Shown piece by piece: positions 86 through 29,960 of a stretch of DNA of 59,077 nucleotides; within the stretch, counting starts at the first letter, position 1, and each line of letters opens with the position of its first letter. The position numbers were made by a program, and so were the translations under genes. This stretch comes from Thermodesulfovibrionia bacterium (GTDB lineage Bacteria; Nitrospirota; Thermodesulfovibrionia; UBA6902; BMS3Bbin08): contig JAUXYI010000003.1 in assembly GCA_030694425.1 (NCBI GenBank), forward strand, positions 1 to 59,077. The letters are read 5' to 3'. The notes beneath the pieces are model-generated. The model did not search any database, was not told the origin of the DNA, and saw only the letters and a program-made list of their open reading frames with translations.

Positions 86-945
86 AATACTGGTTTATGG
101 ACCAGTATCGCTCCTGGCATGGGGTGCAGAGGATGTGCCGAGTTATTGGAGCATCAAGGAGCGGGTATTACAGATGGAAGAGACAGCCTCAGAGCAGGAG
201 GCAGAAGGAAAATGAGAAAATACTCATGGAGATAAAAGAATCACATAAAAACAGTCGCAGGGCATATGGGAGTCCGAGGATTACCATGGATATACAGGCA
301 AAAGGAATGAGATGCAGTGAAAACCGTGTAGCCCGCTTAATGAAGGTTCATGGGATTGCAGGCAAGGCAAAAAAGAAGTTCAAGGCGACGACAAATTCAA
401 AGCATAACCTGCCGGTTGCTGAGAATCTCCTGAATCAGAACTTTGTGGCAGAGAAGCCAAACACTGTATGGGCCTCGGATATTACGTATATACCGACCTT
501 GGAAGGCTGGCTGTATTTGGTAGTGATTCTGGACCTCTATTCCCGACAGGTAGTCGGATGGGCCATGAGTGACCGACTGACATCGGGGTTTGTTGTCAAA
601 GCATTATATCAGGCTGTAGGGCGAAGGCGACCAGCTTCGGGATGTATACTTCACTCTGACAGAGGGGTTCAGTATGCAAGCGCTGATTTCCGGGATGTAC
701 TAAAGGCCTATGGCTTTATCCAGAGCATGAGCAGGAAGGGCAATTGTTATGATAACGCAGTTGCGGAGAGCTTTTTTCATACGTTAAAGATAGAGCATGT
801 GTATGATTACCGGTATGAAACACGGACAGAGGCTATACAAAGTGTTTTCGAATATATTGAAATGTTCTATAATCGTCAGAGGAGACATTCAGCCTTGGGA
901 TACCGTTCACCGGTATCATTTGAGCTGGAGACTATGGCAGCCTAA
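82..945 (+). CDS. IS3 transposase OrfB (DDE integrase core)
   Basis: A 287-residue DDE-type transposase. An HTH_21-like N-terminal part (about 1-60) precedes the rve integrase core. Catalytic residues are visible: D133 (WASDITYI), D193 (LHSDRGVQY) and E229 (NAVAESFFH), with the D-35-E spacing of the IS3 family. The C-terminal motif RRHSALGYRSPVSFE is also typical. Its ATG overlaps the orfA stop (ATGA), but the main product is probably an OrfAB fusion made by -1 frameshifting at 46-53. It appears intact and may be active. Confidence 0.93.
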   Translation: MKYWFMDQYRSWHGVQRMCRVIGASRSGYYRWKRQPQSRRQKENEKILMEIKESHKNSRRAYGSPRITMDIQAKGMRCSENRVARLMKVHGIAGKAKKKFKATTNSKHNLPVAENLLNQNFVAEKPNTVWASDITYIPTLEGWLYLVVILDLYSRQVVGWAMSDRLTSGFVVKALYQAVGRRRPASGCILHSDRGVQYASADFRDVLKAYGFIQSMSRKGNCYDNAVAESFFHTLKIEHVYDYRYETRTEAIQSVFEYIEMFYNRQRRHSALGYRSPVSFELETMAA

Positions 946-980
946 CTTAACTGAGTGTCCGAGAAATCGGGGGAAGATCA

Positions 981-1449
981 GAGTTCTTACTTGAAGTTCG
1001 CAAACGAGATTGCGAAGGTCATCGTAACGTGGGCCTTGGTACGACATGTGCAATCGGATAACGTAATGGTGTGCAGCATACCCAAATCTATCTTCTTCTA
1101 TATCTAGCTTGTTTACTGACTCAATAACTTCAAATGCTTGTGGAAGAAGTGTTTGTATTCGTCCAGTGTCTTCTCTATAAAGACAATTCACTCGAACACC
1201 CGCAATGTCAGACATCTGTGCGAAAGGAACATCGTAGTCCTTTCTTTGTACTTTATTGAGAAAACTCTCAATAGTTTTAGTACGATGTGTAATACTAGAA
1301 AATTTAATGCCTTTGCTTTTCAGGAACTTTTCAATAATATAACTGACCTCAGAGCAAAGCGCTTGATATGATGGCAGTAGTTGAAAATATTCCTGTATAA
1401 TTTTACTATGTTCAATCCAAACGTATCTGTTATCGATGGATTTGTTCAT
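981..1449 (-). pseudogene. RelA/SpoT-domain (p)ppGpp synthetase-like gene truncated by the IS3 element
   Basis: About 156 residues of a RelA_SpoT nucleotidyltransferase domain remain. Recognisable pieces are the substrate-binding region (DIAGVRVNCLYREDTGRI), a HHYVI segment matching the usual YRSLHYVI, and CELQVRT matching the conserved E-Q-R-T strand. The frame is cut right after QVRT where the IS begins, so the C-terminal part is lost or lies left of the window. The likely start is ATG at 1449, with AGGTG about 7 bases upstream; GTG at 1458 is an alternative. No HD or TGS domain is seen, so the intact gene was probably a small alarmone synthetase or a toxSAS-type toxin. The family call is fairly safe; the biological role is inferred. 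Confidence 0.75.
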
Positions 1450-1872
1450 TTTAGTCACCTAACTAGTTATTATAGGAACGGATAAGTAAAAATAGCACAA
1501 CTTTGAACGTGTGGTCAATGGAAAAAATGGCTTGACATATTTGATGAATTTTATAACACTTTCTCAGAGACTAATATGCAAAATTGAATGTTAGTCCGTG
1601 CTTCCCGCCACGCAACACAGGTTTTGAAATGCCAACTTTCAAATGAATTTCAGTGTAGCAATTTTGTAGCAGAAAGCATCCGATTTTACATAATATACAG
1701 AAAATATTGGAAAGGATAGAATTTTAATTTATCTTTCTGATTCAATCTCTTAACTAAATATCCAGACCAGAAGCCCACTTAGCAAAAATTGTTTTTAAGC
1801 GGATGGCATTCAAGAGGTCGTCCCGACGAATCGGGATCAGCTCCACCATCCCGCTCAAGTTTTATAGGGATT
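1450..1872. other. Non-coding stretch
   Basis: AT-rich sequence with no credible gene. A short inverted repeat, TCCCGACGAATCGGGA, lies near 1822-1837. Nothing else recognised. Confidence 0.5.
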
Positions 1873-6873: not shown

Positions 6874-7731
6874 TCACACCTCATTAATCCCCAGTTGTAA
6901 TTTTTCGAGTTGCATCAATATGTAATCAAATTTCTCTTCAATTGCGTGTGTGCCTCGTAGCATGTCTGAAACCAACCTGTATTGCGACTGTTCCCCTGTT
7001 TCACCATCTAATATGTTCCTGACTATCCTCAAGGTATCGGGATCAGATATTCTTGCCATGTCACGGCCAAGTAGTCTAATACCTGCCAGCCTGGTATCAA
7101 AATTCTCTTCTTGTAGCAATTCCTGCTCTTTTTCGTACAGTCGATCAATATTACCAGCTTCCTCATACTTATGCATAACAAGCAATAAATCCTCAGCATC
7201 TTTTTTCCGCTCAGGATATTTCTCTTTCCATGAGATAATTTTCATAAGTGCCAATCCCGCCAGAGTAGGCAGTTTGATATCGATATCAGGATTAGAGTTT
7301 AGTCTGACTGTAATTGAGGATTCATAAGCCTCCTTAAAACCCACCATGCTCATGAAGATTTCATGTTCCGGCGGCCAACTTATCCTTCTTTTTTCATCAG
7401 TAATGAGGCCAAAGGGAACGATATCAACAAGGACAGTATTAAAGCGAAGTCTCTGAGGTTCTGCAGTAAAAGAGAATTTTCCTGTTGCTATGAGTGATTC
7501 TTTTAATTGTCTGAATTGTTCCCAAGTTGCAACTTCTACACCTAAATCTATGTCTGTAGTCATCCTGTGGGTCTCTATGCCATAACAATGTTTGAGAATG
7601 AAGTCTCTTGCTGAAGCGCCAACAACAAAAAACGAGATTTCCAAAGAGTCTGTAACAGCCTTTACAATCAAAAGGGCTTCTACTATTTTTTGTTCAATCT
7701 TCTCTGATAAGTCGAATAATATTTTGCTCAT
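6874..7731 (-). CDS. AbiEii-like nucleotidyltransferase, putative toxin of a type IV TA pair
   Basis: 285 residues with a polymerase-beta-type nucleotidyltransferase core near the N-terminus: FVVGASARDF (GS/GA motif) and TDIDLGV (DxD metal site). A helical C-terminal part follows. In the AbiE family the nucleotidyltransferase is the toxin and its activity is blocked through the AbiEi partner. Its start lies inside the end of the upstream gene (38-base overlap), showing translational coupling. It is followed by an attC-like remnant. Family assignment is by motif and partner; the target RNA is unknown. Confidence 0.75.
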   Translation of the reverse strand: MSKILFDLSEKIEQKIVEALLIVKAVTDSLEISFFVVGASARDFILKHCYGIETHRMTTDIDLGVEVATWEQFRQLKESLIATGKFSFTAEPQRLRFNTVLVDIVPFGLITDEKRRISWPPEHEIFMSMVGFKEAYESSITVRLNSNPDIDIKLPTLAGLALMKIISWKEKYPERKKDAEDLLLVMHKYEEAGNIDRLYEKEQELLQEENFDTRLAGIRLLGRDMARISDPDTLRIVRNILDGETGEQSQYRLVSDMLRGTHAIEEKFDYILMQLEKLQLGINEV

Positions 7732-8734
7732 AGATTATTTTCGCTATTTCTATGTTTCTCTGGTTTCCTGTTGCAATGAGATCTGCATAAACGAGGATGG
7801 GATGTACCAGATCCGCATATTGCAACGTCTCAACAGGCTTCCAGAATCTTTCAAGCACTTCAACATCTCCGGCAGGATCTTTCCTGAGTCTGTTCTCAAG
7901 TAACAGTTGGTTGATCTGCTGCGCCGTTGTATAAATCGTTATCAACTCGGGTTTCAGATATTGTGTGAGCCTTGCTGCAGCCACTTCTCCACCCCACTGC
8001 GCTTTTAATGGGTCCAGTTTTTTCTGTTGCCACCAGCCATATTCACCTCTGTAGCGCCCAAGCATCTGCTTCGGCCTTAACTGCTCTGGATATGCAGTTA
8101 CCCAGCGCTGTAATAAGTTTTCTTTATGTATCAGCTTTTGTCCTTGTTTCCCCATGTCCAGAAGAAAACCCAGTTCTTTTAATTCTTTCATTATCCAGGC
8201 AACAGTTCCAAGTGCCACATCTGTCTCAGCAGCAATTTCCCTATAGGTCTTATTTTCTAAGCCAGGATTGCATAAAAAGGCATAAATCATTCTAAGCCCT
8301 GTAGGCTTAAATGCTCTCTTGAGAGGCGCTTTTCTAATTGCCTCCGGAGGTCTATTCCCTTTTATAAAGATGTACAGCGGCGGCTGATTGAAAAATGCAT
8401 TACCTGCTGTATCAATAAATTCTACGCCATCCTGCCTTAACTGTTCCGCCATATATGTATTTACATATTTTGTGATTAATAGGAGTGGATAGGTCAGTTT
8501 CTCTTTGTGCAGGAGCAATAAGAGCTTGTTGGCTTTCGTAACCGTAGTTTTAACTTCAGCATAGTAATGGAGCTCTTTGCCTTGAATTACCATTCGCAAG
8601 AGCATATCTGGCCGTTTAAATCCTGGTAACGGCTGAATTGCCTCAGCCTCGACCTGTACCGGAACAATCTTTCTTAATGCCTCAAAGGCAAGTTGAAAGA
8701 TTTCCTGTTCAATATTTTTGTTGAGCACATTCAT
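7694..8734 (-). CDS. AbiEi-family antitoxin/regulator (type IV TA)
   Basis: 346 residues. The N-terminal part resembles a nuclease-fold region (GFKRPDMLLRM...YYAEVKTT). A winged HTH follows (NKTYREIAAETDVALGTVAWIMKELKELGFL, about 183-213). The C-terminal region with RRGEYGWW-like and PVETLQ motifs fits AbiEi_3-type antitoxins. It overlaps the toxin gene and is preceded by a set of GTTCAT/ATGAAC palindromes, the expected arrangement for an autoregulating antitoxin. The N-terminal nuclease-like portion is longer than in minimal AbiEi proteins. Confidence 0.75.
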   Translation of the reverse strand: MNVLNKNIEQEIFQLAFEALRKIVPVQVEAEAIQPLPGFKRPDMLLRMVIQGKELHYYAEVKTTVTKANKLLLLLHKEKLTYPLLLITKYVNTYMAEQLRQDGVEFIDTAGNAFFNQPPLYIFIKGNRPPEAIRKAPLKRAFKPTGLRMIYAFLCNPGLENKTYREIAAETDVALGTVAWIMKELKELGFLLDMGKQGQKLIHKENLLQRWVTAYPEQLRPKQMLGRYRGEYGWWQQKKLDPLKAQWGGEVAAARLTQYLKPELITIYTTAQQINQLLLENRLRKDPAGDVEVLERFWKPVETLQYADLVHPILVYADLIATGNQRNIEIAKIIYEQNIIRLIRED

Positions 8735-9494: not shown

Positions 9495-9677
9495 TTAATG
9501 TGCGCGTACCTGTTCTTTGGGTTCGACAATTTTCAACCCCAGTGACTTAATGGTATTTTCTGTTGCCTTGCGGGTTTTTTCAATTAACTCACTCGGTAAT
9601 AGGTCTTTTGTATTGTTATAGTCTTCTTCTCTTACCTTGTGAATCCATTCAAGGGATTTATACTTCCATTTCTCCAT
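9495..9677 (-). CDS. Small conserved third gene of the UPF0175-PIN module
   Basis: 60 residues, highly charged, no domain I can name: motif VREEDYNNTKDLLPSELIEK. It starts 20 bases inside the PIN gene. A homologue at 30302-30484 (VRDRHYEQTKGLSAKEQIEF) also starts exactly 20 bases inside a PIN reading frame. Conservation of sequence and overlap in two loci suggests a functional part of the module. Its role is unknown. Confidence 0.65.
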   Translation of the reverse strand: MEKWKYKSLEWIHKVREEDYNNTKDLLPSELIEKTRKATENTIKSLGLKIVEPKEQVRAH

Positions 9678-10143
9678 CTGCTGTTACCTCCTCTGGAGAT
9701 ATTATCTCAATGGGATTATATCCCATCTTCAGGTTAGTACTATTAATCAACCTTCTCACAGCGATATTGACCATATGTTTGTAATTCCATGAGACTATAT
9801 AATCCAGTTCGTGAAAAACACCAATAGCAATATGTCTCGCATCATTCCGATTCTTCTCCGGAATTGCACCATCATTTACATAGGCGTTCGATAAATTTAT
9901 GGTTTCTTCAGTCTCCTCCAGGACCTTAAAACCTGTCCCTGAGACTTTATTTTTCAGTTCCTCGTTAATCTTATTTGGGGCTTTTAAGATTTCCTCAACT
10001 GTCAAACGGGAGATATAACCTTCATAAACTCCGTCTTTGATTAACTGAAGAAGCCTCTCTACCGTGTTTACCCTTATTGGTTCTTCTGTATCAAAGAGTC
10101 CACCCAATACTGATGTATCTATGTAAAGCCGTAATTTTTTCAT
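9658..10143 (-). CDS. PIN-domain ribonuclease toxin (VapC-like)
   Basis: 161 residues. PIN acidic residues are visible: LYIDTSV near the start, TVEEIL in the middle and RNDARHIAI followed by VSWNYKH near the end. PIN toxins cleave RNA with Mg2+/Mn2+. It begins directly at the end of the UPF0175 gene and overlaps the small downstream gene, giving a three-gene operon. A decayed relative lies at 30100-30321. Confidence 0.85.
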   Translation of the reverse strand: MKKLRLYIDTSVLGGLFDTEEPIRVNTVERLLQLIKDGVYEGYISRLTVEEILKAPNKINEELKNKVSGTGFKVLEETEETINLSNAYVNDGAIPEKNRNDARHIAIGVFHELDYIVSWNYKHMVNIAVRRLINSTNLKMGYNPIEIISPEEVTADGEMEV

Positions 10144-10403
10144 TACTCTATGCTCGGAAATTCTTCCTCAAGTTCATCAGGGGTCATTCTTATGTAAGGT
10201 ATTCCTTTCATGCCTGAATAGCGGATAAATTCAAACCTTTCCATACCAAGTATTTCTGCTGCCTTTCCGCTTGATATCTTCCCTTCCCTGTATAATTCGA
10301 GTACTGCTGCTTCTTTTATTACATCACTGCTAGTCTGATAAGTCGTTGCTATCATAGCCAAAACCTCAGATGGGAAAGAAAGTTCTAACTTTTTTAAAGA
10401 CAT
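10143..10403 (-). CDS. UPF0175-family antitoxin
   Basis: 86 residues. The motif EGKISSGKAAEILGMERFEF is the HTH-like core of UPF0175 proteins, the usual partner of PIN-domain toxins. It is the first gene of the operon, with a strong GGAGGG site before ATG 10403 and a 1-base stop/start overlap with the PIN gene. It should bind DNA and neutralise the toxin. Confidence 0.85.
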   Translation of the reverse strand: MSLKKLELSFPSEVLAMIATTYQTSSDVIKEAAVLELYREGKISSGKAAEILGMERFEFIRYSGMKGIPYIRMTPDELEEEFPSIE

Positions 10404-10571
10404 TTTAAACCCTCCTTTAACATCCCTATCTTACAAATTCTTTATTTTATAAAATTTTAACATATTCTATGTAAAATAAAGTAAATAATTCGGTAGACAA
10501 ACAGAGATGTGACGATGACTACTAAGGCGAGGTTAAGGCAGACAATCCTATGGTGCCAGGATATCGGCAGG

Positions 10572-10745
10572 TCAAGGTAAATGTCGGTTCTCTCTTAGGC
10601 GATTAACATACTTCTGTGCATCCTCTTTCCATAAACCTTTTCCAAGACCGTATAGGTTCTTCCAATCGAGAGCTTTTTTCGTGTCCGGCGATTTCTTCCT
10701 GACCTGATCTGTGGTTTTCCTCCTATCCTTTATAATAATGTCTAT
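10572..10745 (-). pseudogene. Antitoxin-like fragment without a start codon
   Basis: The frame ending at TGA 10574-10572 encodes RRKTTDQVRKKSPDTKKALD then WKNLYGLGKGLWKEDAQKYV and NRLRENRHLP. It resembles the C-terminal part of small antitoxins paired with PIN toxins (WKKLYGLGKGLW type; family resemblance from memory). No ATG/GTG/TTG opens the frame and no partner follows. The rest of the gap (10404-10571 and 10746-10951) shows no gene. Confidence 0.4.
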
Positions 10746-10951
10746 TTTATCATTTTCGGCGGAAACGCGCCCCGGTCTTCTCTTTCAAGGGCGGTGCTTG
10801 GGTGGAGAGGGTCTACGACTCACAGAGGACGCGCTTTGCTGAATCCTGAGCAAAGTCGAAGTGGGAAGGCAATATGCAGGGGTGAGGAAGGGGCGGGCGG
10901 ATGCATAAGACGTTATTGTCTATTTAATGTCACATGAATAATAACAAAGGG

Positions 10952-11464
10952 TTAACTATAATATGATATTGGAATAAAATTGTCGTCTCCAAACCGCGCC
11001 GAGTCATAGAGTTGTAACCAGTTTGTTCTTATTACATATAATTTAGTCTCAATAATACCTTTAGCAAAATCCTTTGGATGTTTAATCCATTCTCCTAAAG
11101 CGGCAAATCTTTTTAAATAAAGTGTTGTTCCCTCTATTAGCTTCTTGCCTATAGCTAATTCACATTCACCACGTAATTGTAAGCCTTTTACATCTTCTGT
11201 CCAAGGTTGGTGACTATCAAAAATTGCTAAGGCTACCGATTTATTCGAAAGAAGATTACAACAATGTTGAGACTTTGAATTTGTTAAAATATAAAACTCT
11301 AAGTATTTGTTATAACAAAAATATGCAGTATTTATATAACTCTGATTTCCATCTTTGATAGTAGCCATTGAAAGAAGAATGTTCTCTTCTAAAATTTCCA
11401 AAACGCTATCATGTAATTCCTTAATTGGATAATTAGGATGACTTAGTTGAACTTTCAAGCTCAT
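10952..11464 (-). CDS. Pyridoxamine 5'-phosphate oxidase-like, FMN-binding split-barrel protein
   Basis: 170 residues. N-terminal helix then a split-barrel core: ILLSMATIKDGNQSYINTAYF and CCNLLSNKSVALAIFDSH are typical of PNPOx-like proteins that bind FMN, F420 or heme. Substrate cannot be predicted. It is transcribed away from the five-gene operon that starts at 11648, sharing a 183-base AT-rich promoter region. It may be functionally linked to that operon as an oxidoreductase; this is inference. Confidence 0.75.
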   Translation of the reverse strand: MSLKVQLSHPNYPIKELHDSVLEILEENILLSMATIKDGNQSYINTAYFCYNKYLEFYILTNSKSQHCCNLLSNKSVALAIFDSHQPWTEDVKGLQLRGECELAIGKKLIEGTTLYLKRFAALGEWIKHPKDFAKGIIETKLYVIRTNWLQLYDSARFGDDNFIPISYYS

Positions 11465-11594
11465 TGGATAACCCCTCCTTCTTTTCTTACTATAAAGAAG
11501 TCAATTTTTACAGATTATTAAATTTATTAATATCTTCTTCTAAAGTCAAGTCATTTATAAACTTGAATATATTAACAAAAGTTATTAAAATTTA

Positions 11595-11606
11595 TGATAA
11601 TTATCA
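11595..11606. promoter_or_regulatory. 12-bp perfect palindrome between divergent genes
   Basis: TGATAATTATCA lies 42 bases before the SDR start, within the shared divergent promoter region. It has a Fur-box-like GATAAT/ATTATC flavour, but only one partial unit is present. A regulatory role is a guess. Confidence 0.3.
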
Positions 11607-11647: not shown

Positions 11648-12394
11648 TTGAAAAAAGGACATGAACCAAGAAATATATTTATTACCGGAGGAACAGGTTC
11701 GGTCGGACAAGCACTTGTGTCCGCCTTTTGTAATAGTAATGATAAGGTCACATTTCAGTATTTTAAAAATAAGACTATTGCAAAGGAACTTGAAGGAAAA
11801 ACTGGTGCGAGAGGAATACTAATTGATTTCACAAAGAATAATATTGAATTGCCGGAGACTGAATTTCAAGTTATTGTAAATAATGCAGGCATAAACATAA
11901 CAAGTGCTCTTTCACACGATGTTTCTATAGAAGATTGGGAAAAAACAATTACTGTAAATTTATTTTTGCCATTTTTAATTATTAAAAAGTACTTACCTCC
12001 AATGATTAAAAAAAGATGGGGAAGAATAATAAATATTTCTTCAATTTGGGGACTCCGTGGGACTGAAAATAACTTACCATATACCGTTTCAAAACATGGC
12101 ATGTCAGGCTTAACCAAAACAATAGCTAAAGAAAATGCACAATACGGAATTACATGTAATGAAATTTGCCCTGGTGCTATTGATTCAGAATTAATAAAAA
12201 AAATTGCTTTTGATAATCAAAAAAAGACGGGCCAAAGCATTGAGGAATATTTAAAAGAAGTATGTGAAGAAATTCCAGCTGGACGTATGGCAAAACCAGT
12301 TGAAATTGCTGAATTAGCCGTTTATCTTTCTTCAGAGAATGCTGACTATCTGAATGGTGCTTCTATTCAACTGGACGGTGCACTAATATGTTAA
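11648..12394 (+). CDS. Short-chain dehydrogenase/reductase (FabG-like), first gene of orphan operon
   Basis: 248 residues, classical SDR. Nucleotide-binding motif TGGTGSVGQAL near the N-terminus, NNAGI, catalytic Ser in INISSIWG, and YTVSKHG (YxxxK). The tail ENADYLNGASIQLDGA fits 3-oxoacyl-ACP-reductase-like SDRs. Start TTG 11648 follows GGGAGAG. Five genes follow in the same direction with gaps of 3-41 bases. Not linked to other fatty-acid genes here, so it probably reduces a ketone in a dedicated pathway. Confidence 0.87.
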   Translation: MKKGHEPRNIFITGGTGSVGQALVSAFCNSNDKVTFQYFKNKTIAKELEGKTGARGILIDFTKNNIELPETEFQVIVNNAGINITSALSHDVSIEDWEKTITVNLFLPFLIIKKYLPPMIKKRWGRIINISSIWGLRGTENNLPYTVSKHGMSGLTKTIAKENAQYGITCNEICPGAIDSELIKKIAFDNQKKTGQSIEEYLKEVCEEIPAGRMAKPVEIAELAVYLSSENADYLNGASIQLDGALIC

Positions 12395-12417
12395 TCCTTT
12401 TTTCATAAAAATATCAT

Positions 12418-13260
12418 ATGTATCACAAAGCATCGATAGGAAAACAATATCGTCTAAATCGCATAATTGACCCTAAAAGCGGGAAAACTGTAATTGTTCC
12501 CATTGATGATAGCCTAATTTATGGCCCCTTTGAGGGATTATCTAATATTCCCAATAAACTTAAACAAATTGTTAAGGGTAAGCCAAACGCAGTTTTAGCT
12601 TTTTTGGGTATCTTTCGAAATAACAGTGTTTTACTTAAGGGTATATCAGGGATTATGAATGTTACTGCAAGTACGGTGAATTCTTTCCATACAAGAAAAG
12701 TTCTTGTAGGGAATGTGAAACAAGCGGTACAAATGGGTATGGATGCTGTGGCTGTTCACTTGAATTTGACATCAAAATACGAGCCTGAAATGCTTCAAAA
12801 TATGGGGGTTATTTCACGAGAATGTGAGGAATATGGAATGCCTTTGATGACAATTGTGTATCCACGGAAAGAAACAAAAGGCGCAGACGAAAACTATGAG
12901 GAAATGAAAATCAAAAATCGAAAAAAATATACAAGTTTGGTTGCACATGCTTGCCGTGTCGGTGTTGATTTGGGCGCCGATATTGTTAAAACGCAGTTTA
13001 CAGGTGATGCTGAAACTTTTTTAAAAGTTGTAGAGGTTTGTTTACCAGTTCCAGTTGTTATTGCAGGGGGACCATTAATTGAACCGATAAAAATGTTTCA
13101 TAATGCTTATGAAGCAGTGAGTGCCGGTGGATCTGGTGTGAGTTTTGGCAGGAATGTATTTAATCGTGATAATTCAACAGCTTTCATAAAAGCTTTAAGA
13201 CAAATTGTTCATAACGGGCTTGATCCAAAAGCTGCATTAAAAATATTGAATAGTAAATAG
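12418..13260 (+). CDS. DhnA/DeoC-LacD-type class I aldolase
   Basis: 280 residues. The TIM-barrel aldolase signatures are seen: IVPIDDSLIYGPFEG (FBP-aldolase/ADH-synthase N-terminal motif), ADIVKTQFTGD with the Schiff-base lysine, and PVVIAGGP plus GGSGVSFGRNVF for phosphate binding. Relatives are archaeal-type fructose-bisphosphate aldolase, LsrF and 2-amino-3,7-dideoxy-threo-hept-6-ulosonate synthase. It lies 23 bases after the SDR. Together they could make and reduce a keto-sugar or keto-acid. Exact substrate unknown. Confidence 0.83.
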   Translation: MYHKASIGKQYRLNRIIDPKSGKTVIVPIDDSLIYGPFEGLSNIPNKLKQIVKGKPNAVLAFLGIFRNNSVLLKGISGIMNVTASTVNSFHTRKVLVGNVKQAVQMGMDAVAVHLNLTSKYEPEMLQNMGVISRECEEYGMPLMTIVYPRKETKGADENYEEMKIKNRKKYTSLVAHACRVGVDLGADIVKTQFTGDAETFLKVVEVCLPVPVVIAGGPLIEPIKMFHNAYEAVSAGGSGVSFGRNVFNRDNSTAFIKALRQIVHNGLDPKAALKILNSK

Positions 13261-13301
13261 ATAATTTTCATGTTATATGATGGAAGCTTTATTTAAATAA
13301 A

Positions 13302-14105
13302 ATGGAAACATGGGATTTAATACAACAATGGAATCTTGTTCTTCCACCTTCCCGACCTACAGAAGCACAATTATCTTTAATTAAAAATCAAATAAACGTT
13401 ATTGATCGGTCAAAATCTGTTGCAGTTCTCGGAAGTACCCCTGAATTTCTTGATGTATTTCATGAATATGACTTTCGGAAAATCTACGTGCTTGAAAAGA
13501 ATATGAACTTTTATAAGGCAATGTTAGAACTTCGTATTTTTCAAAAGACCGAACAAGTTGTGGAAGGAGACTGGTTGGAAACTTTACCAAACCTAAAAGA
13601 CCATTTTTCTCTAATTTTGTCTGATTTAACTATTGGTAATGTTCCCTATGAGAAACGTAACAGATTTTATAGGCTAATTACGGAGGCATTAAAAGAAGGC
13701 GGTATTTTCTGCGACAAAGTTCTCACTCATGTTGGTCAAAATCTATCAGTTGATAGTTTAATAAAAAAATATTCACTTTTGCCTCTAAATCTTTTATATA
13801 TTAATTACTTCTCATGTGAAATGCTTTTTTGCAGTGAATTACTTGATATAAATAACGTCGTAGACACGACTCTTTTTTACTCTATTTTAGAAGAACGGAT
13901 AACAAATAAAAGGGTGAGAGCCTTTGTTCAGCACGCCAAAAAAATTACACCGCCTGATTGTTTGTGGTATTATGGTCGAAAATGGGAAGAAGTGAAGACT
14001 GAATATTGCCCAGATTTGAAACTAATCGATGCCAACGATGACGAGCTATCGAGTCCTTATTATAAGCGACTCAAGTTTTTTACATTTATTAAAAAAACCG
14101 GTTAA
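13302..14105 (+). CDS. SAM-dependent methyltransferase-like protein
   Basis: 267 residues. A Rossmann methyltransferase core is suggested by SVAVLGSTPEFLDVF (glycine loop), IYVLEKN (acidic ribose-binding residue), EGDWLETL and FSLILSDLTIGNVP, then EALKEGGIFCDKVL. The N-terminal WNLVLPPSRPTEAQ motif precedes the fold. No known specific family is recognised. Third gene of the operon, 3 bases before the next start. Acceptor unknown. Confidence 0.65.
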   Translation: METWDLIQQWNLVLPPSRPTEAQLSLIKNQINVIDRSKSVAVLGSTPEFLDVFHEYDFRKIYVLEKNMNFYKAMLELRIFQKTEQVVEGDWLETLPNLKDHFSLILSDLTIGNVPYEKRNRFYRLITEALKEGGIFCDKVLTHVGQNLSVDSLIKKYSLLPLNLLYINYFSCEMLFCSELLDINNVVDTTLFYSILEERITNKRVRAFVQHAKKITPPDCLWYYGRKWEEVKTEYCPDLKLIDANDDELSSPYYKRLKFFTFIKKTG

Positions 14106-14108
14106 AAC

Positions 14109-15047
14109 ATGTATGAACTTAAAAAACAAATAATAGTTCTTGCTATACAACTTGCAGTATCTATCATATTCAGCTTTGTTCCGGGTTGGACTACTATTGA
14201 GCTAACATTATATGAACAAATATTATTTTCAATTTCTTTGTTCATCGTATTTCTTTTATTAGATATATTATGGATTGTAGCACATAGATTAAATCTCTTA
14301 TCAAGAGAGGCTGAGCTTTGGTTACTGCGTAATAATGGTGACTGGGAGCTTTCAAATATTCGTACTTCCTTTGCTAAGATTATCCAAAATTCATATGGAA
14401 AGAGAGACCTTTTTATAGCACATTTTATGAAAGAATTCCAACGCTTATCGAATAAAATTAAAGACGTAACCGAAAAACAAGAGTTACGAGTCGCGGCAGA
14501 TCATTTTCTAAGTGTTGAGAATGTTCTTGACGCATTTTCCGGTGATGATGAACGGATCTGGCGATATACATGGCCTTTAAGCGCTGGACAGAAATTATTT
14601 GATGACCTTCCATGGAAGCGTTACTTTGAAGCGACTACTAAAATGGTGATTGAAAAAAAGATTGAATGTATTCGTTCCATTCTTATTTTAGATAACGCTT
14701 CCTTAATAAATGATTCCGGAATTAAGAAGTTGATGGATTTTTTTCATTCAAATGAAAGAATGGATTGTCGGCTTATTTTATATGACGTTTATAAAAAAAT
14801 TTGCTCTGATAATGAACTTCCTCCACATTATATAGATTTTGGTATCTATGGTCGACGATTGCTTTTTAGAACAGAACAATACGAGCCTGAAATTATTGGT
14901 ACTTTTTCTAAAGATGCAAATCTGATTAATAACTATGTCAATTTATTTGATGCAATGTGGAACGCTGATAGCGTTACAATAAAAAATCCATCTACAGTTA
15001 CTGAAATTGTGACTCTTGAAGAGTTATTCAAATTTGACAATGACTGA
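14109..15047 (+). CDS. Unrecognised membrane-anchored protein
   Basis: 312 residues. Two N-terminal hydrophobic helices (about 8-28 and 38-60) form a hairpin anchor; the remaining about 250 residues are predicted cytoplasmic. SILILDNASLINDSGIKKLM and CRLILYDVYKKI look like alternating beta/alpha elements, loosely reminiscent of phospholipase-D-like or MEDS-like folds, but no catalytic motif is seen. Fourth gene of the operon, start 3 bases after the methyltransferase stop, so co-translated. Function unknown. Confidence 0.6.
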   Translation: MYELKKQIIVLAIQLAVSIIFSFVPGWTTIELTLYEQILFSISLFIVFLLLDILWIVAHRLNLLSREAELWLLRNNGDWELSNIRTSFAKIIQNSYGKRDLFIAHFMKEFQRLSNKIKDVTEKQELRVAADHFLSVENVLDAFSGDDERIWRYTWPLSAGQKLFDDLPWKRYFEATTKMVIEKKIECIRSILILDNASLINDSGIKKLMDFFHSNERMDCRLILYDVYKKICSDNELPPHYIDFGIYGRRLLFRTEQYEPEIIGTFSKDANLINNYVNLFDAMWNADSVTIKNPSTVTEIVTLEELFKFDND

Positions 15048-15073
15048 TTGGTAAGAAGTATGAAGTATAAATA

Positions 15074-15946
15074 ATGCATAGATATAAGATTCTTGGTGAA
15101 CTTATAACTTTCAATAATACTCAAGGATTAGACCTCGATGGAATCCTATATCAAAATGATACTAACAAAACTACCATTATTCATATCCATGGTAGCCTTG
15201 GAAATTTCTATCAGAATCAATTCCTACGCTTAATGGCAAAGCATTATCTTAATGTTGGTATTAATTTATTATCATTTAATTTAGGGTGTCACGATGGTGT
15301 CGGTGAGGGTTATCTTTACGAGAATGATTTTAAATATATAGGTGGTTCCATAACAGATTTTTCAACATGTATTTTTGATATTGAAGGTGCAATAAACTTT
15401 ACGAGTCAATTTAGTGAGAGAATCATTTTGCAGGGCCACAGTCTTGGGTGTGATAGAATTTTACATTTTCTGATAAGCCAAAAAAAGAATTATGATTTTA
15501 TTTTACTTGCCCCATGTGACAGTTATCAACTGCAGGCAAACTGGATTGCTCCTGAGACCGTGGAAGCGCAAATTGAACGACTAAAAGCAGAGGCAAAATC
15601 AGAAGATATATTTGACTGGCTACCAAGTCGTGAATACGGAATTCGCGGAAACGGTGAAAATTATGTTATCCCAATTACTCGAAAAGCTTTACTCTCGATA
15701 ATACAAGGACCTCCATATAGATTAATCAGAATCGGCAATCCCTCAAAATTTTCACTAAAGCAGCGAGCATTAATTTATATTGGTGGTAAAGATGCTCTTC
15801 AAACTGAACCATCTGAAGTGATGTTTAAATACCTCGAGGAACGTATTCATGATGTTACAAGGGTATATGTGCCTCAAGGTGCCCACAGCCTCGAAGGATG
15901 CGAATATGAAGTAATTGAGAAGATTATAAAATGGACTATGATTTAA
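15074..15946 (+). CDS. Alpha/beta-hydrolase
   Basis: 290 residues. Oxyanion motif HIHGSLGNF, nucleophile elbow GHSLGCDR (G-x-S-x-G) and a C-terminal GAHSLEG carrying the likely catalytic His; YIGGKDAL before it could supply the acid. No signal peptide. Last gene of the five-gene operon, where it may act as thioesterase, esterase or lactonase on the product of the preceding enzymes. Substrate unknown. Confidence 0.78.
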   Translation: MHRYKILGELITFNNTQGLDLDGILYQNDTNKTTIIHIHGSLGNFYQNQFLRLMAKHYLNVGINLLSFNLGCHDGVGEGYLYENDFKYIGGSITDFSTCIFDIEGAINFTSQFSERIILQGHSLGCDRILHFLISQKKNYDFILLAPCDSYQLQANWIAPETVEAQIERLKAEAKSEDIFDWLPSREYGIRGNGENYVIPITRKALLSIIQGPPYRLIRIGNPSKFSLKQRALIYIGGKDALQTEPSEVMFKYLEERIHDVTRVYVPQGAHSLEGCEYEVIEKIIKWTMI

Positions 15947-16157
15947 TCTAAAATAGATAGCCTTGCGGTATAATTCCTGCCAGATTCTTCACTCAGCATT
16001 GAGACTGAAAGGGTCAAGGATTACGGAGATAATATTTTTTTCTCCTCTATAGTCATTGGGTATTGGTCTCTCAGAAAAACTTAAACCTGTTCTCGTAATA
16101 CTCCTTTCCTGTCAATAACCCCTGTTCATACATAGCCTTCCAGTCCTTTTTTAAGTT

Positions 16158-28279: not shown

Positions 28280-29350
28280 ATGAAAACATTTGATATTACT
28301 ACAACTCAATATAAGGTAAGTGATTTTCTCAGTTGGCAAAAAGCAGGAACACTCATATTAAGCCCCAGCTTTCAGAGAAGATCTGTTTGGAAAAAAGGAG
28401 CAAAATCATATCTTATCGACACTGTAGTTAGAGGGTTGCCTATACCAATCATATTTATTCGTGAGCGAAGAACTGATTTGAAAACTTTCGAGCCTCTACG
28501 AGAAGTTGTAGATGGTCAACAGAGAATAAGGACATTAATTTCATATATTTCTCCTAACTTATTAACTGACATAGATAAAAATAGGGATATATTTACAGTA
28601 TTACCTAGCCATAATAAAGAAATAACTGGATATATATTTGAAAAATTGTCCGAAGATATAAAGAATAAAATTCTTGATTATAAATTTAGTGTCCATGTTC
28701 TTCCTCCTAATGTTGACGACCAGGATGTCTTACAAATATTTGCAAGGATAAATTCAACTGGCATGAAATTAAATGGCCAAGAATTGAGAAATGCTGAATA
28801 TTATGGTGAATTCAAAACACTGATGTACAATCTTGCTTTGAAAAATCTTAATAGATGGCGGAAATGGAAAATATTTACCGAGGACGATATCTCACGTATG
28901 TTGGAAGTTGAACTGACAAGTGAACTCTGCATTTTCATGCTCAATGGCATTACTGCAAAAAAACAGAAGGCTATTGATGGAATATATGAAAAGTATGATC
29001 CATCTTTTAAAGAAAAAAGTGGAATCGAAAAAAGATTTGACTTTGTTATGGAAGCTATTGATGAAAATCTTGGCGATAAACTACAATTTTCCGCTTACAA
29101 AAATAAAACATTATTTTATGGCTTGTTCGGGATAATTTATGAGCTTACTTATGGTGAAAAAGCTAGTTTAGAAAAACTTCAGCCCCAAAAAACAACAAGA
29201 AAACAATGGTCAAATTTGATTGGCGAATCAGAGAAATTTGAAAAAAAGAAAGTCCCGATAAAGGTTATTGGAGCCATAACAAGAAGAACAACTGACTTAT
29301 TATCCAGAAAAATATTATTTGATCACTTACGAAAAATTGTAAATGGCTAA
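28280..29350 (+). CDS. DUF262-domain protein (GmrSD N-terminal-like)
   Basis: 356 residues. LSPSFQRRSVWKKGAKSYLI and the hallmark VVDGQQRIRTLISYI place it in DUF262, the ParB-like NTP-sensing domain of type IV restriction enzyme GmrS. The C-terminal DUF1524 HNH nuclease domain of GmrSD is absent; the remaining 200 residues are helical, with a second motif FARINSTGMKLNGQELRNAE. The last 8 bases overlap the HEPN start. The gene is AT-rich compared with neighbouring core genes. Likely the sensor or regulatory half of a two-gene defence module. Confidence 0.85.
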   Translation: MKTFDITTTQYKVSDFLSWQKAGTLILSPSFQRRSVWKKGAKSYLIDTVVRGLPIPIIFIRERRTDLKTFEPLREVVDGQQRIRTLISYISPNLLTDIDKNRDIFTVLPSHNKEITGYIFEKLSEDIKNKILDYKFSVHVLPPNVDDQDVLQIFARINSTGMKLNGQELRNAEYYGEFKTLMYNLALKNLNRWRKWKIFTEDDISRMLEVELTSELCIFMLNGITAKKQKAIDGIYEKYDPSFKEKSGIEKRFDFVMEAIDENLGDKLQFSAYKNKTLFYGLFGIIYELTYGEKASLEKLQPQKTTRKQWSNLIGESEKFEKKKVPIKVIGAITRRTTDLLSRKILFDHLRKIVNG

Positions 29351-29960
29351 GCATTCAAGTGCATATTTTTTCCAATTTATTAGTCATCTTAATAATGTCG
29401 AACATACTAGAAAAAAGATGGAGTTTTTATATGAACAGAAACTAATTGTTGAAAGGGATTTAAATTTTGTCTATTCCGGGCTTTTTCTCGATGTGATTAC
29501 AAATTTTGAAAATATGATTGAAGATCTTTTTACTGATTTATTAACGGGTAATACAAAACATCTTTCAAGAAAAGTGCAAACTAAAATTATTTTCCCAACT
29601 ATTAATATTTGCCGTGATATAGTTTATGGAACTAAGTCATACATTGATTGGTTCCCATATGACCAAACATTAAAAAGATCAAACATATTTTTTAAAAACG
29701 GATTGCCTTTCAGTTCGCTTGAAAAACAAAATAAAACGATATTACAAGAAATGGTATATATTAGAAATGCGCTAGCTCATAAAAGTAGGCATGCTTTAAA
29801 AATGTTTAACCGGGAAGTAATTAAAGATAAAGTTCTTATTCCTAAAGAAAAATCCCCGATAGGTTATCTTAGAAGGATCGTTGCTTTAGCACCTCGTCAA
29901 ACACAGTATGAAGTTTATATATCAGAAATAGCAAATATCGCGAAGATTTTATGCCACTAA
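29343..29960 (+). CDS. HEPN-domain protein, putative ribonuclease partner of DUF262
   Basis: 205 residues, all-helical. The HEPN signature R-N-x4-H appears as RNALAHK near residue 140, preceded by conserved acidic helices (FENMIEDLFTDLL). It resembles the MAE_28990-type HEPN group. HEPN proteins with RNxxxH are metal-independent RNases in toxin-antitoxin, CRISPR and abortive-infection systems. ATG overlaps the DUF262 stop (8 bases), so the two are stoichiometrically coupled. Catalytic role is inferred. Confidence 0.72.
   Translation: MAKHSSAYFFQFISHLNNVEHTRKKMEFLYEQKLIVERDLNFVYSGLFLDVITNFENMIEDLFTDLLTGNTKHLSRKVQTKIIFPTINICRDIVYGTKSYIDWFPYDQTLKRSNIFFKNGLPFSSLEKQNKTILQEMVYIRNALAHKSRHALKMFNREVIKDKVLIPKEKSPIGYLRRIVALAPRQTQYEVYISEIANIAKILCH

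What the first reader, a model, noticed from the sequence alone, without database searches (positions are those of the whole stretch)
11648..15946. Orphan five-gene operon: SDR, DhnA aldolase, methyltransferase, membrane protein, hydrolase
Gaps are 3-41 bases, gene composition is AT-rich, and a split-barrel flavoprotein-like gene is divergent from it. I know no pathway with this set. An aldolase plus reductase plus methylase plus hydrolase could build and release a small modified keto-sugar or keto-acid, with the membrane protein for localisation or export. The only putative operator is a GATAAT-type palindrome.
Basis: inference. Interest (0 to 1): 0.6.

Follow-up and report, generated by a model that had tools for sequence, protein, structure and literature searches.

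The report
Foreign orphan enzyme operon, function unknown
Five adjacent genes that look acquired from elsewhere encode a reductase, an unusual aldolase, a likely methyltransferase, a membrane protein and a likely hydrolase; they probably make or modify a small molecule, but no relative of the set was found, so its product is unknown.

Summary
Five long same-strand ORFs (248, 280, 267, 312, 290 aa; gaps 23, 41, 3, 26) lie exactly at 11648-15946, with a divergent PNPOx-type gene 183 bases away. All six have GC3 of 0.20-0.27, below all 31 core genes compared (minimum 0.295). They sit beside a conserved hisD-murA-prmC-prfA block, at a place whose content differs in the one relative that keeps this block. 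The DNA was found only in the window's own genome among 47 of its order.

Only the SDR and the aldolase can be placed. The aldolase belongs to the MJ0400/ADH-synthase subfamily (NF005556), with Schiff-base Lys191, Asp30 and Tyr148. It fails the ADH-synthase equivalog model, has Asp where 93 of 93 relatives have the phosphate-contacting His, and carries an insert. The genome has no dehydroquinate synthase II. So it is not the archaeal aromatic or the 3,4-AHBA pathway. The methyltransferase, membrane protein and hydrolase match no Pfam or NCBIfam family above cut-off.

Most likely this is a transferred small-molecule cassette, probably biosynthetic. Product, substrate and the role of the membrane protein are inference. 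Co-occurrence elsewhere could be neither shown nor excluded.

The parts
10952..11464 (-). Divergent PNPOx-type split-barrel (FMN-binding-like) protein, 170 aa; same foreign base composition as the operon
   Evidence: Pfam PNPOx_N 30.7 bits, cut-off 28.1; weak YhbP / F420-PPOX / HutZ hits below cut-off; GC3 0.222
11572..11606 (+). Candidate promoter (TTAACA-18-GATAAT) overlapped by the 12-base palindrome TGATAATTATCA (11595-11606): putative operator
   Evidence: consensus match only
11648..12394 (+). SDR oxidoreductase, FabG-like, 248 aa, TTG start; TGGTGSVG and NNAG motifs, S132-Y145-K149
   Evidence: PF13561 123 bits and PF00106 121 bits; NF009466 167 bits, cut-off 222; PDB SDRs; motif positions
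12418..13260 (+). DeoC/LacD-family class I aldolase of the MJ0400/ADH-synthase (DhnA) subfamily, 280 aa; Lys191, Asp30, Tyr148 kept; Asp31 in place of the phosphate-contacting His; insert near 153-163
   Evidence: PF01791 124.6 bits; NF005556 257.7 bits, cut-off 241; PDB 2qjg E 6e-52; columns
13302..14105 (+). Probable class I SAM-dependent methyltransferase, 267 aa, orphan sequence
   Evidence: VAVLGSTPEF at 40, YVLEKN at 62, DLTIGN at 108, LKEGG at 130; sub-threshold methyltransferase hits over about residues 59-145 in several libraries
14109..15047 (+). Membrane protein, 312 aa: two N-terminal transmembrane helices (from about residues 8 and 38) and a cytosolic-looking domain of about 240 aa, orphan sequence
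   Evidence: hydropathy; no family above cut-off
15074..15946 (+). Probable alpha/beta serine hydrolase, 290 aa; GHSLG (Ser123), candidate Asp240 and His271
   Evidence: motifs; DUF1749 E 7.7e-4, below cut-off; 26.8% identity over 58% to an alpha/beta hydrolase on a Klebsiella plasmid

Best explanation
A horizontally acquired, co-transcribed enzyme cassette that makes (less likely degrades) a small specialised metabolite. SHOWN: five adjacent ORFs, foreign base composition together with the divergent PNPOx gene, a class I aldolase with its Schiff-base machinery intact but an altered substrate pocket, and an SDR with a complete catalytic triad. INFERRED: the aldolase forms a C-C bond from a ketose-phosphate-type donor and an unknown aldehyde; the SDR reduces the resulting ketone; the methyltransferase methylates it; the hydrolase removes an ester or thioester group or releases the product; the two-helix membrane protein holds the step at the membrane or handles the product; a repressor at the palindrome controls the operon. 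Biosynthesis is preferred over breakdown because the set has no transporter and no sugar kinase, unlike the catabolic-looking cluster around the related aldolase on a Rhizobium plasmid.
For: (genes, families, motifs, spacing). GC3 of all six genes below all 31 core genes. DNA absent from the other 46 of 47 genomes of the order searched. Neighbouring sequence differs in the one relative that keeps the flanking block. Asp30, Lys191, GG 217-218 and Arg245 identical in 93 of 93 relatives and Tyr148 in 86 of 93. Contrast with the Rhizobium cluster that has a TRAP transporter, dehydrogenases and an FGGY kinase.
Against: No homologous cassette was found, so natural selection on the set as a unit is not shown. 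Co-occurrence of the aldolase with the other genes was 0 of 98 loci for the methyltransferase, membrane protein, hydrolase and PNPOx gene; the SDR gave only two distant hits. Methyltransferase and hydrolase assignments are sub-threshold. Codon choice does not depart from the core. Four of the five operon genes lack a four-base Shine-Dalgarno match, but 19 of 31 core genes do too. No transcript data.
Confidence: 0.42

Rival explanations
1. Breakdown cassette: the SDR oxidises, the aldolase cleaves a ketose-phosphate-like substrate, the hydrolase first removes an ester, the methyltransferase protects or detoxifies.
For: Related aldolases occur in catabolic-looking clusters with dehydrogenases; the distant hydrolase relative on a Klebsiella plasmid lies among oxidoreductases and a tautomerase.
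Against: No transporter or kinase in the set; a methyltransferase is unusual in a breakdown route (general knowledge).
Confidence: 0.2
2. Archaeal-type aromatic (ADH synthase / DHQ synthase II) or 3,4-AHBA (GriI/GriH) chemistry.
For: Aldolase passes the ADH-synthase subfamily model NF005556; best solved structure is MJ0400; 55 of 80 related loci have a DHQS-II homologue in the DNA held.
Against: No PF01959 in the genome or in any of 47 genomes of the order, while the control search rang in 3 of 14 known genomes, all archaea; equivalog model TIGR01949 failed (218 of 299.45 bits) and BagB_FevI failed (128 of 500); pocket His lost.
Confidence: 0.04
3. Signal-and-effector cassette: the enzymes make or modify a small ligand and the two-helix membrane protein, with its large cytosolic domain, senses it or acts on the membrane, perhaps in phage or plasmid conflict.
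For: Two helices plus a soluble domain; variable site; AbiE, PIN/UPF0175 and GmrSD_N (DUF262) genes elsewhere in the window.
Against: No PADLOC hit for four of the five operon proteins, and only a 55-residue methyltransferase-type hit for the fifth; neighbouring toxin-antitoxin genes have normal GC3, so they need not have come with it; no structure of the domain (pLDDT 44).
Confidence: 0.1
4. Chance assembly: genes brought by separate transfers into a variable site, without a common function.
For: Site is variable; no conserved relative of the set found.
Against: Same strand, gaps of 3-41 bases, and similar low GC3 in all six genes.
Confidence: 0.14

Closest known systems
ADH synthase (2-amino-3,7-dideoxy-D-threo-hept-6-ulosonate synthase), MJ0400 type
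   Same: Closest solved relative (E 6e-52); subfamily model NF005556 passed; Schiff-base Lys, catalytic Asp and proton-donor Tyr positions kept
   Different: Fails equivalog TIGR01949; Asp in place of the His that 93 of 93 compared relatives have; HKG to FLG and PRG to PRK changes; insert of about 11 residues; no DHQ synthase II in the genome
GriI / BagB / FevI DhnA-type aldolases of 3,4-AHBA pathways
   Same: Same aldolase superfamily (127.7 bits, E 4e-37)
   Different: Model cut-off 500 not reached; no GriH-type partner
LsrF (phospho-AI-2 thiolase) and the LsrF-like aldolases of this phylum
   Same: Same fold family; LsrF 91 bits; 12 other genomes of the 290 sampled from the phylum have relatives at 31-37% identity
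   Different: Separate branch in the tree; window protein keeps the Tyr and the TGD stretch that the seven compared rows lack; NF006081 cut-off failed
FabG-like SDR reductases
   Same: Full-length match, catalytic S-Y-K
   Different: No equivalog cut-off reached among the 25 families shown

Membership tests
ADH synthase (archaeal aromatic pathway) | Subfamily model NF005556 above cut-off | tested here: met
   257.7 bits, cut-off 241
ADH synthase (archaeal aromatic pathway) | Equivalog model TIGR01949 above cut-off | tested here: not met
   218.2 bits, cut-off 299.45
ADH synthase (archaeal aromatic pathway) | Catalytic Lys, Asp and Tyr | tested here: met
   Lys191 and Asp30 identical in 93 of 93 relatives compared; Tyr148 in 86 of 93; roles from PMC4162585 (passages) and PMC2728841 (section 9)
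ADH synthase (archaeal aromatic pathway) | Phosphate-contacting His after the catalytic Asp | tested here: not met
   Asp31; His in 93 of 93. E. coli FBPA has Glu at this position and still binds phosphorylated ligand
ADH synthase (archaeal aromatic pathway) | DHQ synthase II (PF01959) in the genome | tested here: not met
   0 of 47 genomes of the order, own included
3,4-AHBA DhnA-type aldolase (GriI/BagB/FevI) | Model NF041223 above cut-off and GriH-type partner | tested here: not met
   127.7 of 500 bits; no PF01959
LsrF | Model NF006081 above cut-off | tested here: not met
   145.4 of 297 bits
SDR superfamily | TGxxxGxG, NNAG, catalytic S-Y-K | tested here: met
   TGGTGSVG at 13, NNAG at 78, S132/Y145/K149; PF13561 and PF00106 above cut-off
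Class I SAM-dependent methyltransferase | Family model above cut-off, or fold | tested here: inconclusive
   Only sub-threshold hits; structure model too poor to use (pLDDT 35)
Alpha/beta serine hydrolase | Nucleophile elbow and family model above cut-off | tested here: inconclusive
   GHSLG present, DUF1749 19.1 of 24 bits
PNPOx-type split barrel (divergent gene) | PF01243 above cut-off | tested here: met
   30.7 bits, cut-off 28.1
Known anti-phage defence system | PADLOC models for the operon proteins | tested here: not met
   None for SDR, aldolase, membrane protein, hydrolase; methyltransferase 22.8 bits over 55 residues of mad2
Operon (single transcript) | Co-transcription | not testable with these tools
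   Only spacing and strand

The most novel reading that the evidence does not exclude
A new kind of small-molecule signalling cassette: a repurposed ADH-synthase-like aldolase, an SDR and a methyltransferase build a diffusible or intracellular ligand, the hydrolase destroys or releases it, and the two-helix membrane protein, whose soluble domain resembles (by my recollection of the sequence pattern only) a degenerate phospholipase-D-like sensor, is its receptor or membrane-acting effector.
Probability: 0.06. Interest if true: 0.75.

Novelty: new variant of a known kind. Interest (0 to 1): 0.3.

Why it matters
If real as a unit, it is a compact transferred cassette built around an aldolase whose active site has moved away from the aromatic pathway: catalytic residues are kept and a pocket residue invariant among 93 compared relatives is changed. 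It also includes a methyltransferase and a membrane protein without recognised family. It would offer a defined place to look for a new C-C bond-forming specificity in little-cultured bacteria. As it stands it is one more uncharacterised metabolic island.

Tried and rejected
Aromatic / 3,4-AHBA pathway: rejected for lack of PF01959 and failed models. Defence system in PADLOC: no match beyond a short methyltransferase-type hit. Phage origin: no match for the methyltransferase or membrane protein in phage records and no locus from viral-contig scans with four of the five proteins and two aldolase alignments.

Fur/iron control: considered because of the GATAAT palindrome and a faint HutZ hit of the PNPOx gene. 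Matches to TGATAATNATTATCA number 13 against 8.8 +/- 3.0 by chance; not supported. SD-poor donor (Bacteroidota-like): not supported, because 19 of 31 core genes also lack a four-base SD match. Codon-choice test of foreignness: no signal.

Structure route: single-sequence AlphaFold models of the methyltransferase and membrane protein were too poor (mean pLDDT 35 and 44), so no fold search was run. The phospholipase-D-like resemblance of the membrane protein's soluble part is recalled from pattern only; Pfam gave nothing for that part even at E 10.

Homologue hunt for the methyltransferase: own genome only in 295 phylum genomes; 0 of 297 at E 1e-5 in a second phylum; 1 of 326 at E 1e-3, a 64-residue match at E 4.7e-4; 0 of 324 in a third; short weak matches in 1 of 21 and 1 of 7. 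One search was meant for another phylum but nearly all of its printed handles are the same as, so it is largely a repeat. The tool itself warns that empty answers without a positive control show little. The genome-contig scan with the single methyltransferase needs 8 identical residues and so reaches only close relatives.

Paper searches for a matching cluster; none listed one (listings only). Passages read: PMC4162585, PMC2728841 (passages, section 9), PMC6692506.
Full report
WHAT IS THERE. They are 248, 280, 267, 312 and 290 aa long. Shuffled versions of the same stretch give a longest open run of 78 codons on average and 119 at most in 200 trials, so these are not chance frames. A divergent gene (10952-11464, -) starts 183 bases upstream of the first ORF and passes Pfam PNPOx_N. 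The window is contig 19 of a 2.4 Mb, 101-contig genome (96.4% complete, 3.35% contamination).

FOREIGN ORIGIN. GC at third codon positions is 0.201-0.272 for the five genes and 0.222 for the PNPOx gene. In 31 genes of the same window that I chose as core it is 0.354 +/- 0.032 with a minimum of 0.295. The low composition therefore includes the divergent gene. The AbiE, PIN and UPF0175 genes to the left have ordinary GC3 (0.33-0.41) and look like separate arrivals. A DUF262 gene and its neighbour at 28-30 kb have the same low GC3 (0.246, 0.223). Against this, a codon-choice score relative to the core shows no departure for the operon. The region's DNA matched only the own genome among 47 genomes of the order. 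To the right lies a conserved block. In a same-family genome (G295) the order DUF1385-PrfA-PrmC-MurA-HisD-YfiC is kept at 54-77% identity, but beyond YfiC none of the window's left-hand genes is found in the remaining 13 kb. A 433-aa ORF there reads to me as a site-specific recombinase, which I did not test. Of the nine stretches fetched, all nine have the YfiC relative, but only this one keeps the block; in the other eight only YfiC, and in three a weak PrfA match, were found.

THE ALDOLASE. It is a DeoC/LacD-family protein (PF01791, 124.6 bits). NF005556, the ADH-synthase subfamily, is passed (257.7 bits, cut-off 241), while the equivalog TIGR01949 (218 of 299), archaeal FBP aldolase (154 of 430), LsrF-type thiolase (145 of 297) and BagB/FevI (128 of 500) are all failed. 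MJ0400 is the closest solved protein. I compared it with 93 relatives: 80 from the genome scan, 6 of the 10 plasmid hits, and 7 of the 12 phylum hits. The Schiff-base Lys (191), the acid/base Asp (30), GG 217-218 and Arg245 are invariant; Tyr148 is kept in 86 of 93. The residue after the Asp is His in 93 of 93 relatives and Asp31 here. In LsrF the corresponding His hydrogen-bonds the substrate phosphate (PMC2728841, passages of section 6; the paper prints it as His58 there and as His54 in section 9). The same section says E. coli FBP aldolase has Glu there, so an acidic residue does not by itself exclude a phosphorylated substrate. Further changes at positions conserved in at least 90% of the 80 genome-scan rows include HKG to FLG and PRG to PRK, and there is an insert of about 11 residues after the PRK. 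In a quick tree the protein is a lone long branch (1.75 changes per column) that no well-supported set of up to half the rows contains. MJ0400-type roles of Asp33 and Lys184 are as stated in PMC4162585 (passages).

NOT THE KNOWN PATHWAYS. DHQ synthase II (PF01959), the partner in the archaeal aromatic route, is absent from all 47 genomes of the order, own included; the same search rang in 3 of 14 control genomes, all archaea. GriH is called the 3,4-AHBA synthase and GriI the DhnA-type aldolase of one cluster in PMC6692506 (passages); on three plasmids here DHQ-synthase-II-type genes adjoin related aldolases. Of the 80 related loci 55 have a DHQS-II homologue within the DNA held. The window operon has none.

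THE OTHER GENES. The SDR is FabG-like with S132, Y145 and K149; among the 25 best NCBIfam models shown none reaches its cut-off, so its substrate is open. The methyltransferase call rests on four motif-like stretches and on sub-threshold methyltransferase hits in Pfam, PADLOC, PHROGs and NCBIfam that fall on roughly the same region, residues 59-145. The hydrolase has GHSLG with Ser123 and plausible Asp240 and His271, with DUF1749 just under its cut-off; its only plasmid relative at E 1e-3 is a 26.8% match over 58% of its length. The membrane protein has two strong hydrophobic helices near its N-terminus and no recognised family. AlphaFold without an alignment gave unusable models for it and for the methyltransferase. 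My impression that its soluble part follows a degenerate phospholipase-D-like pattern is recollection, not a test.

DO RELATIVES CO-OCCUR? This could not be settled. The methyltransferase was found in 1 of 295 and the membrane protein in 1 of 290 sampled genomes of the phylum, the own genome in both cases. Further samples gave at most short weak matches (largely repeats the sample). A search of 98 loci that hold relatives of the aldolase (12 with flanks of up to 1.5 kb, 6 with 6 kb, 80 with up to 8 kb, some cut short by contig ends) found no homologue of the methyltransferase, membrane protein, hydrolase or PNPOx gene at E 0.01, and two distant SDRs on haloarchaeal plasmids. Plasmid and phage records hold no match to the methyltransferase or the membrane protein.

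HOW IT PROBABLY WORKS. The best reading is a transferred cassette for a small molecule. The aldolase step is the firmest: Schiff-base C-C chemistry on a ketone, probably phosphorylated since Arg and the Gly contacts remain, but with a changed pocket. Reduction by the SDR, methylation, and hydrolytic trimming or release are inferred from family. The membrane protein's role is open. Absence of transporter and kinase favours biosynthesis over breakdown, weakly. Expression control at the 12-base palindrome over a promoter-like site is plausible but rests on consensus matches in AT-rich DNA.

VERDICT. Observation confirmed. The interpretation 'orphan operon of unknown pathway' is fair, and the specific chemistry is speculation. 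Interest is moderate to low: an unusual aldolase and two proteins without recognised family in one foreign cassette, but no evidence yet that the set is conserved or what it makes.

Noticed in passing
6874-8734 (-): AbiEi/AbiEii-type toxin-antitoxin pair (PF09952, PF08843 above cut-off) left of the operon.
   Followed up: partly
9658-10403 (-): PIN-domain-like and UPF0175 pair, likely a toxin-antitoxin module; UPF0175 is above cut-off, PIN is not.
   Followed up: partly
28280-29960 (+): GmrSD_N/DUF262 gene, which also hits PADLOC NsnA (146 bits), with an unassigned 205-aa neighbour; both have low GC3 like the operon. A candidate second foreign defence-type pair.
   Followed up: partly
10404-10951: Apparent remnant reading frame on the - strand (...LDWKNLYGLGKGLWKEDAQKYVNRLRENR...), which by recollection resembles an antitoxin C-terminus.
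   Followed up: no
15948-16157 (-): Short broken frame (DWKAMYEQGLLTGKEYYENRFKFF then stop) between the operon and the YfiC-like gene, possibly a gene remnant.
   Followed up: no
10844-10861 (-): Single copy in the window of CTTCGACTTTGCTCAGGA, which by recollection resembles a dispersed repeat; one match in the window against 0.08 expected.
   Followed up: no
916-1458 (-): Short RelA/SpoT-domain protein beside an integrase-like IS ORF at 82-945 (the IS reading is from the sequence, untested).
   Followed up: no
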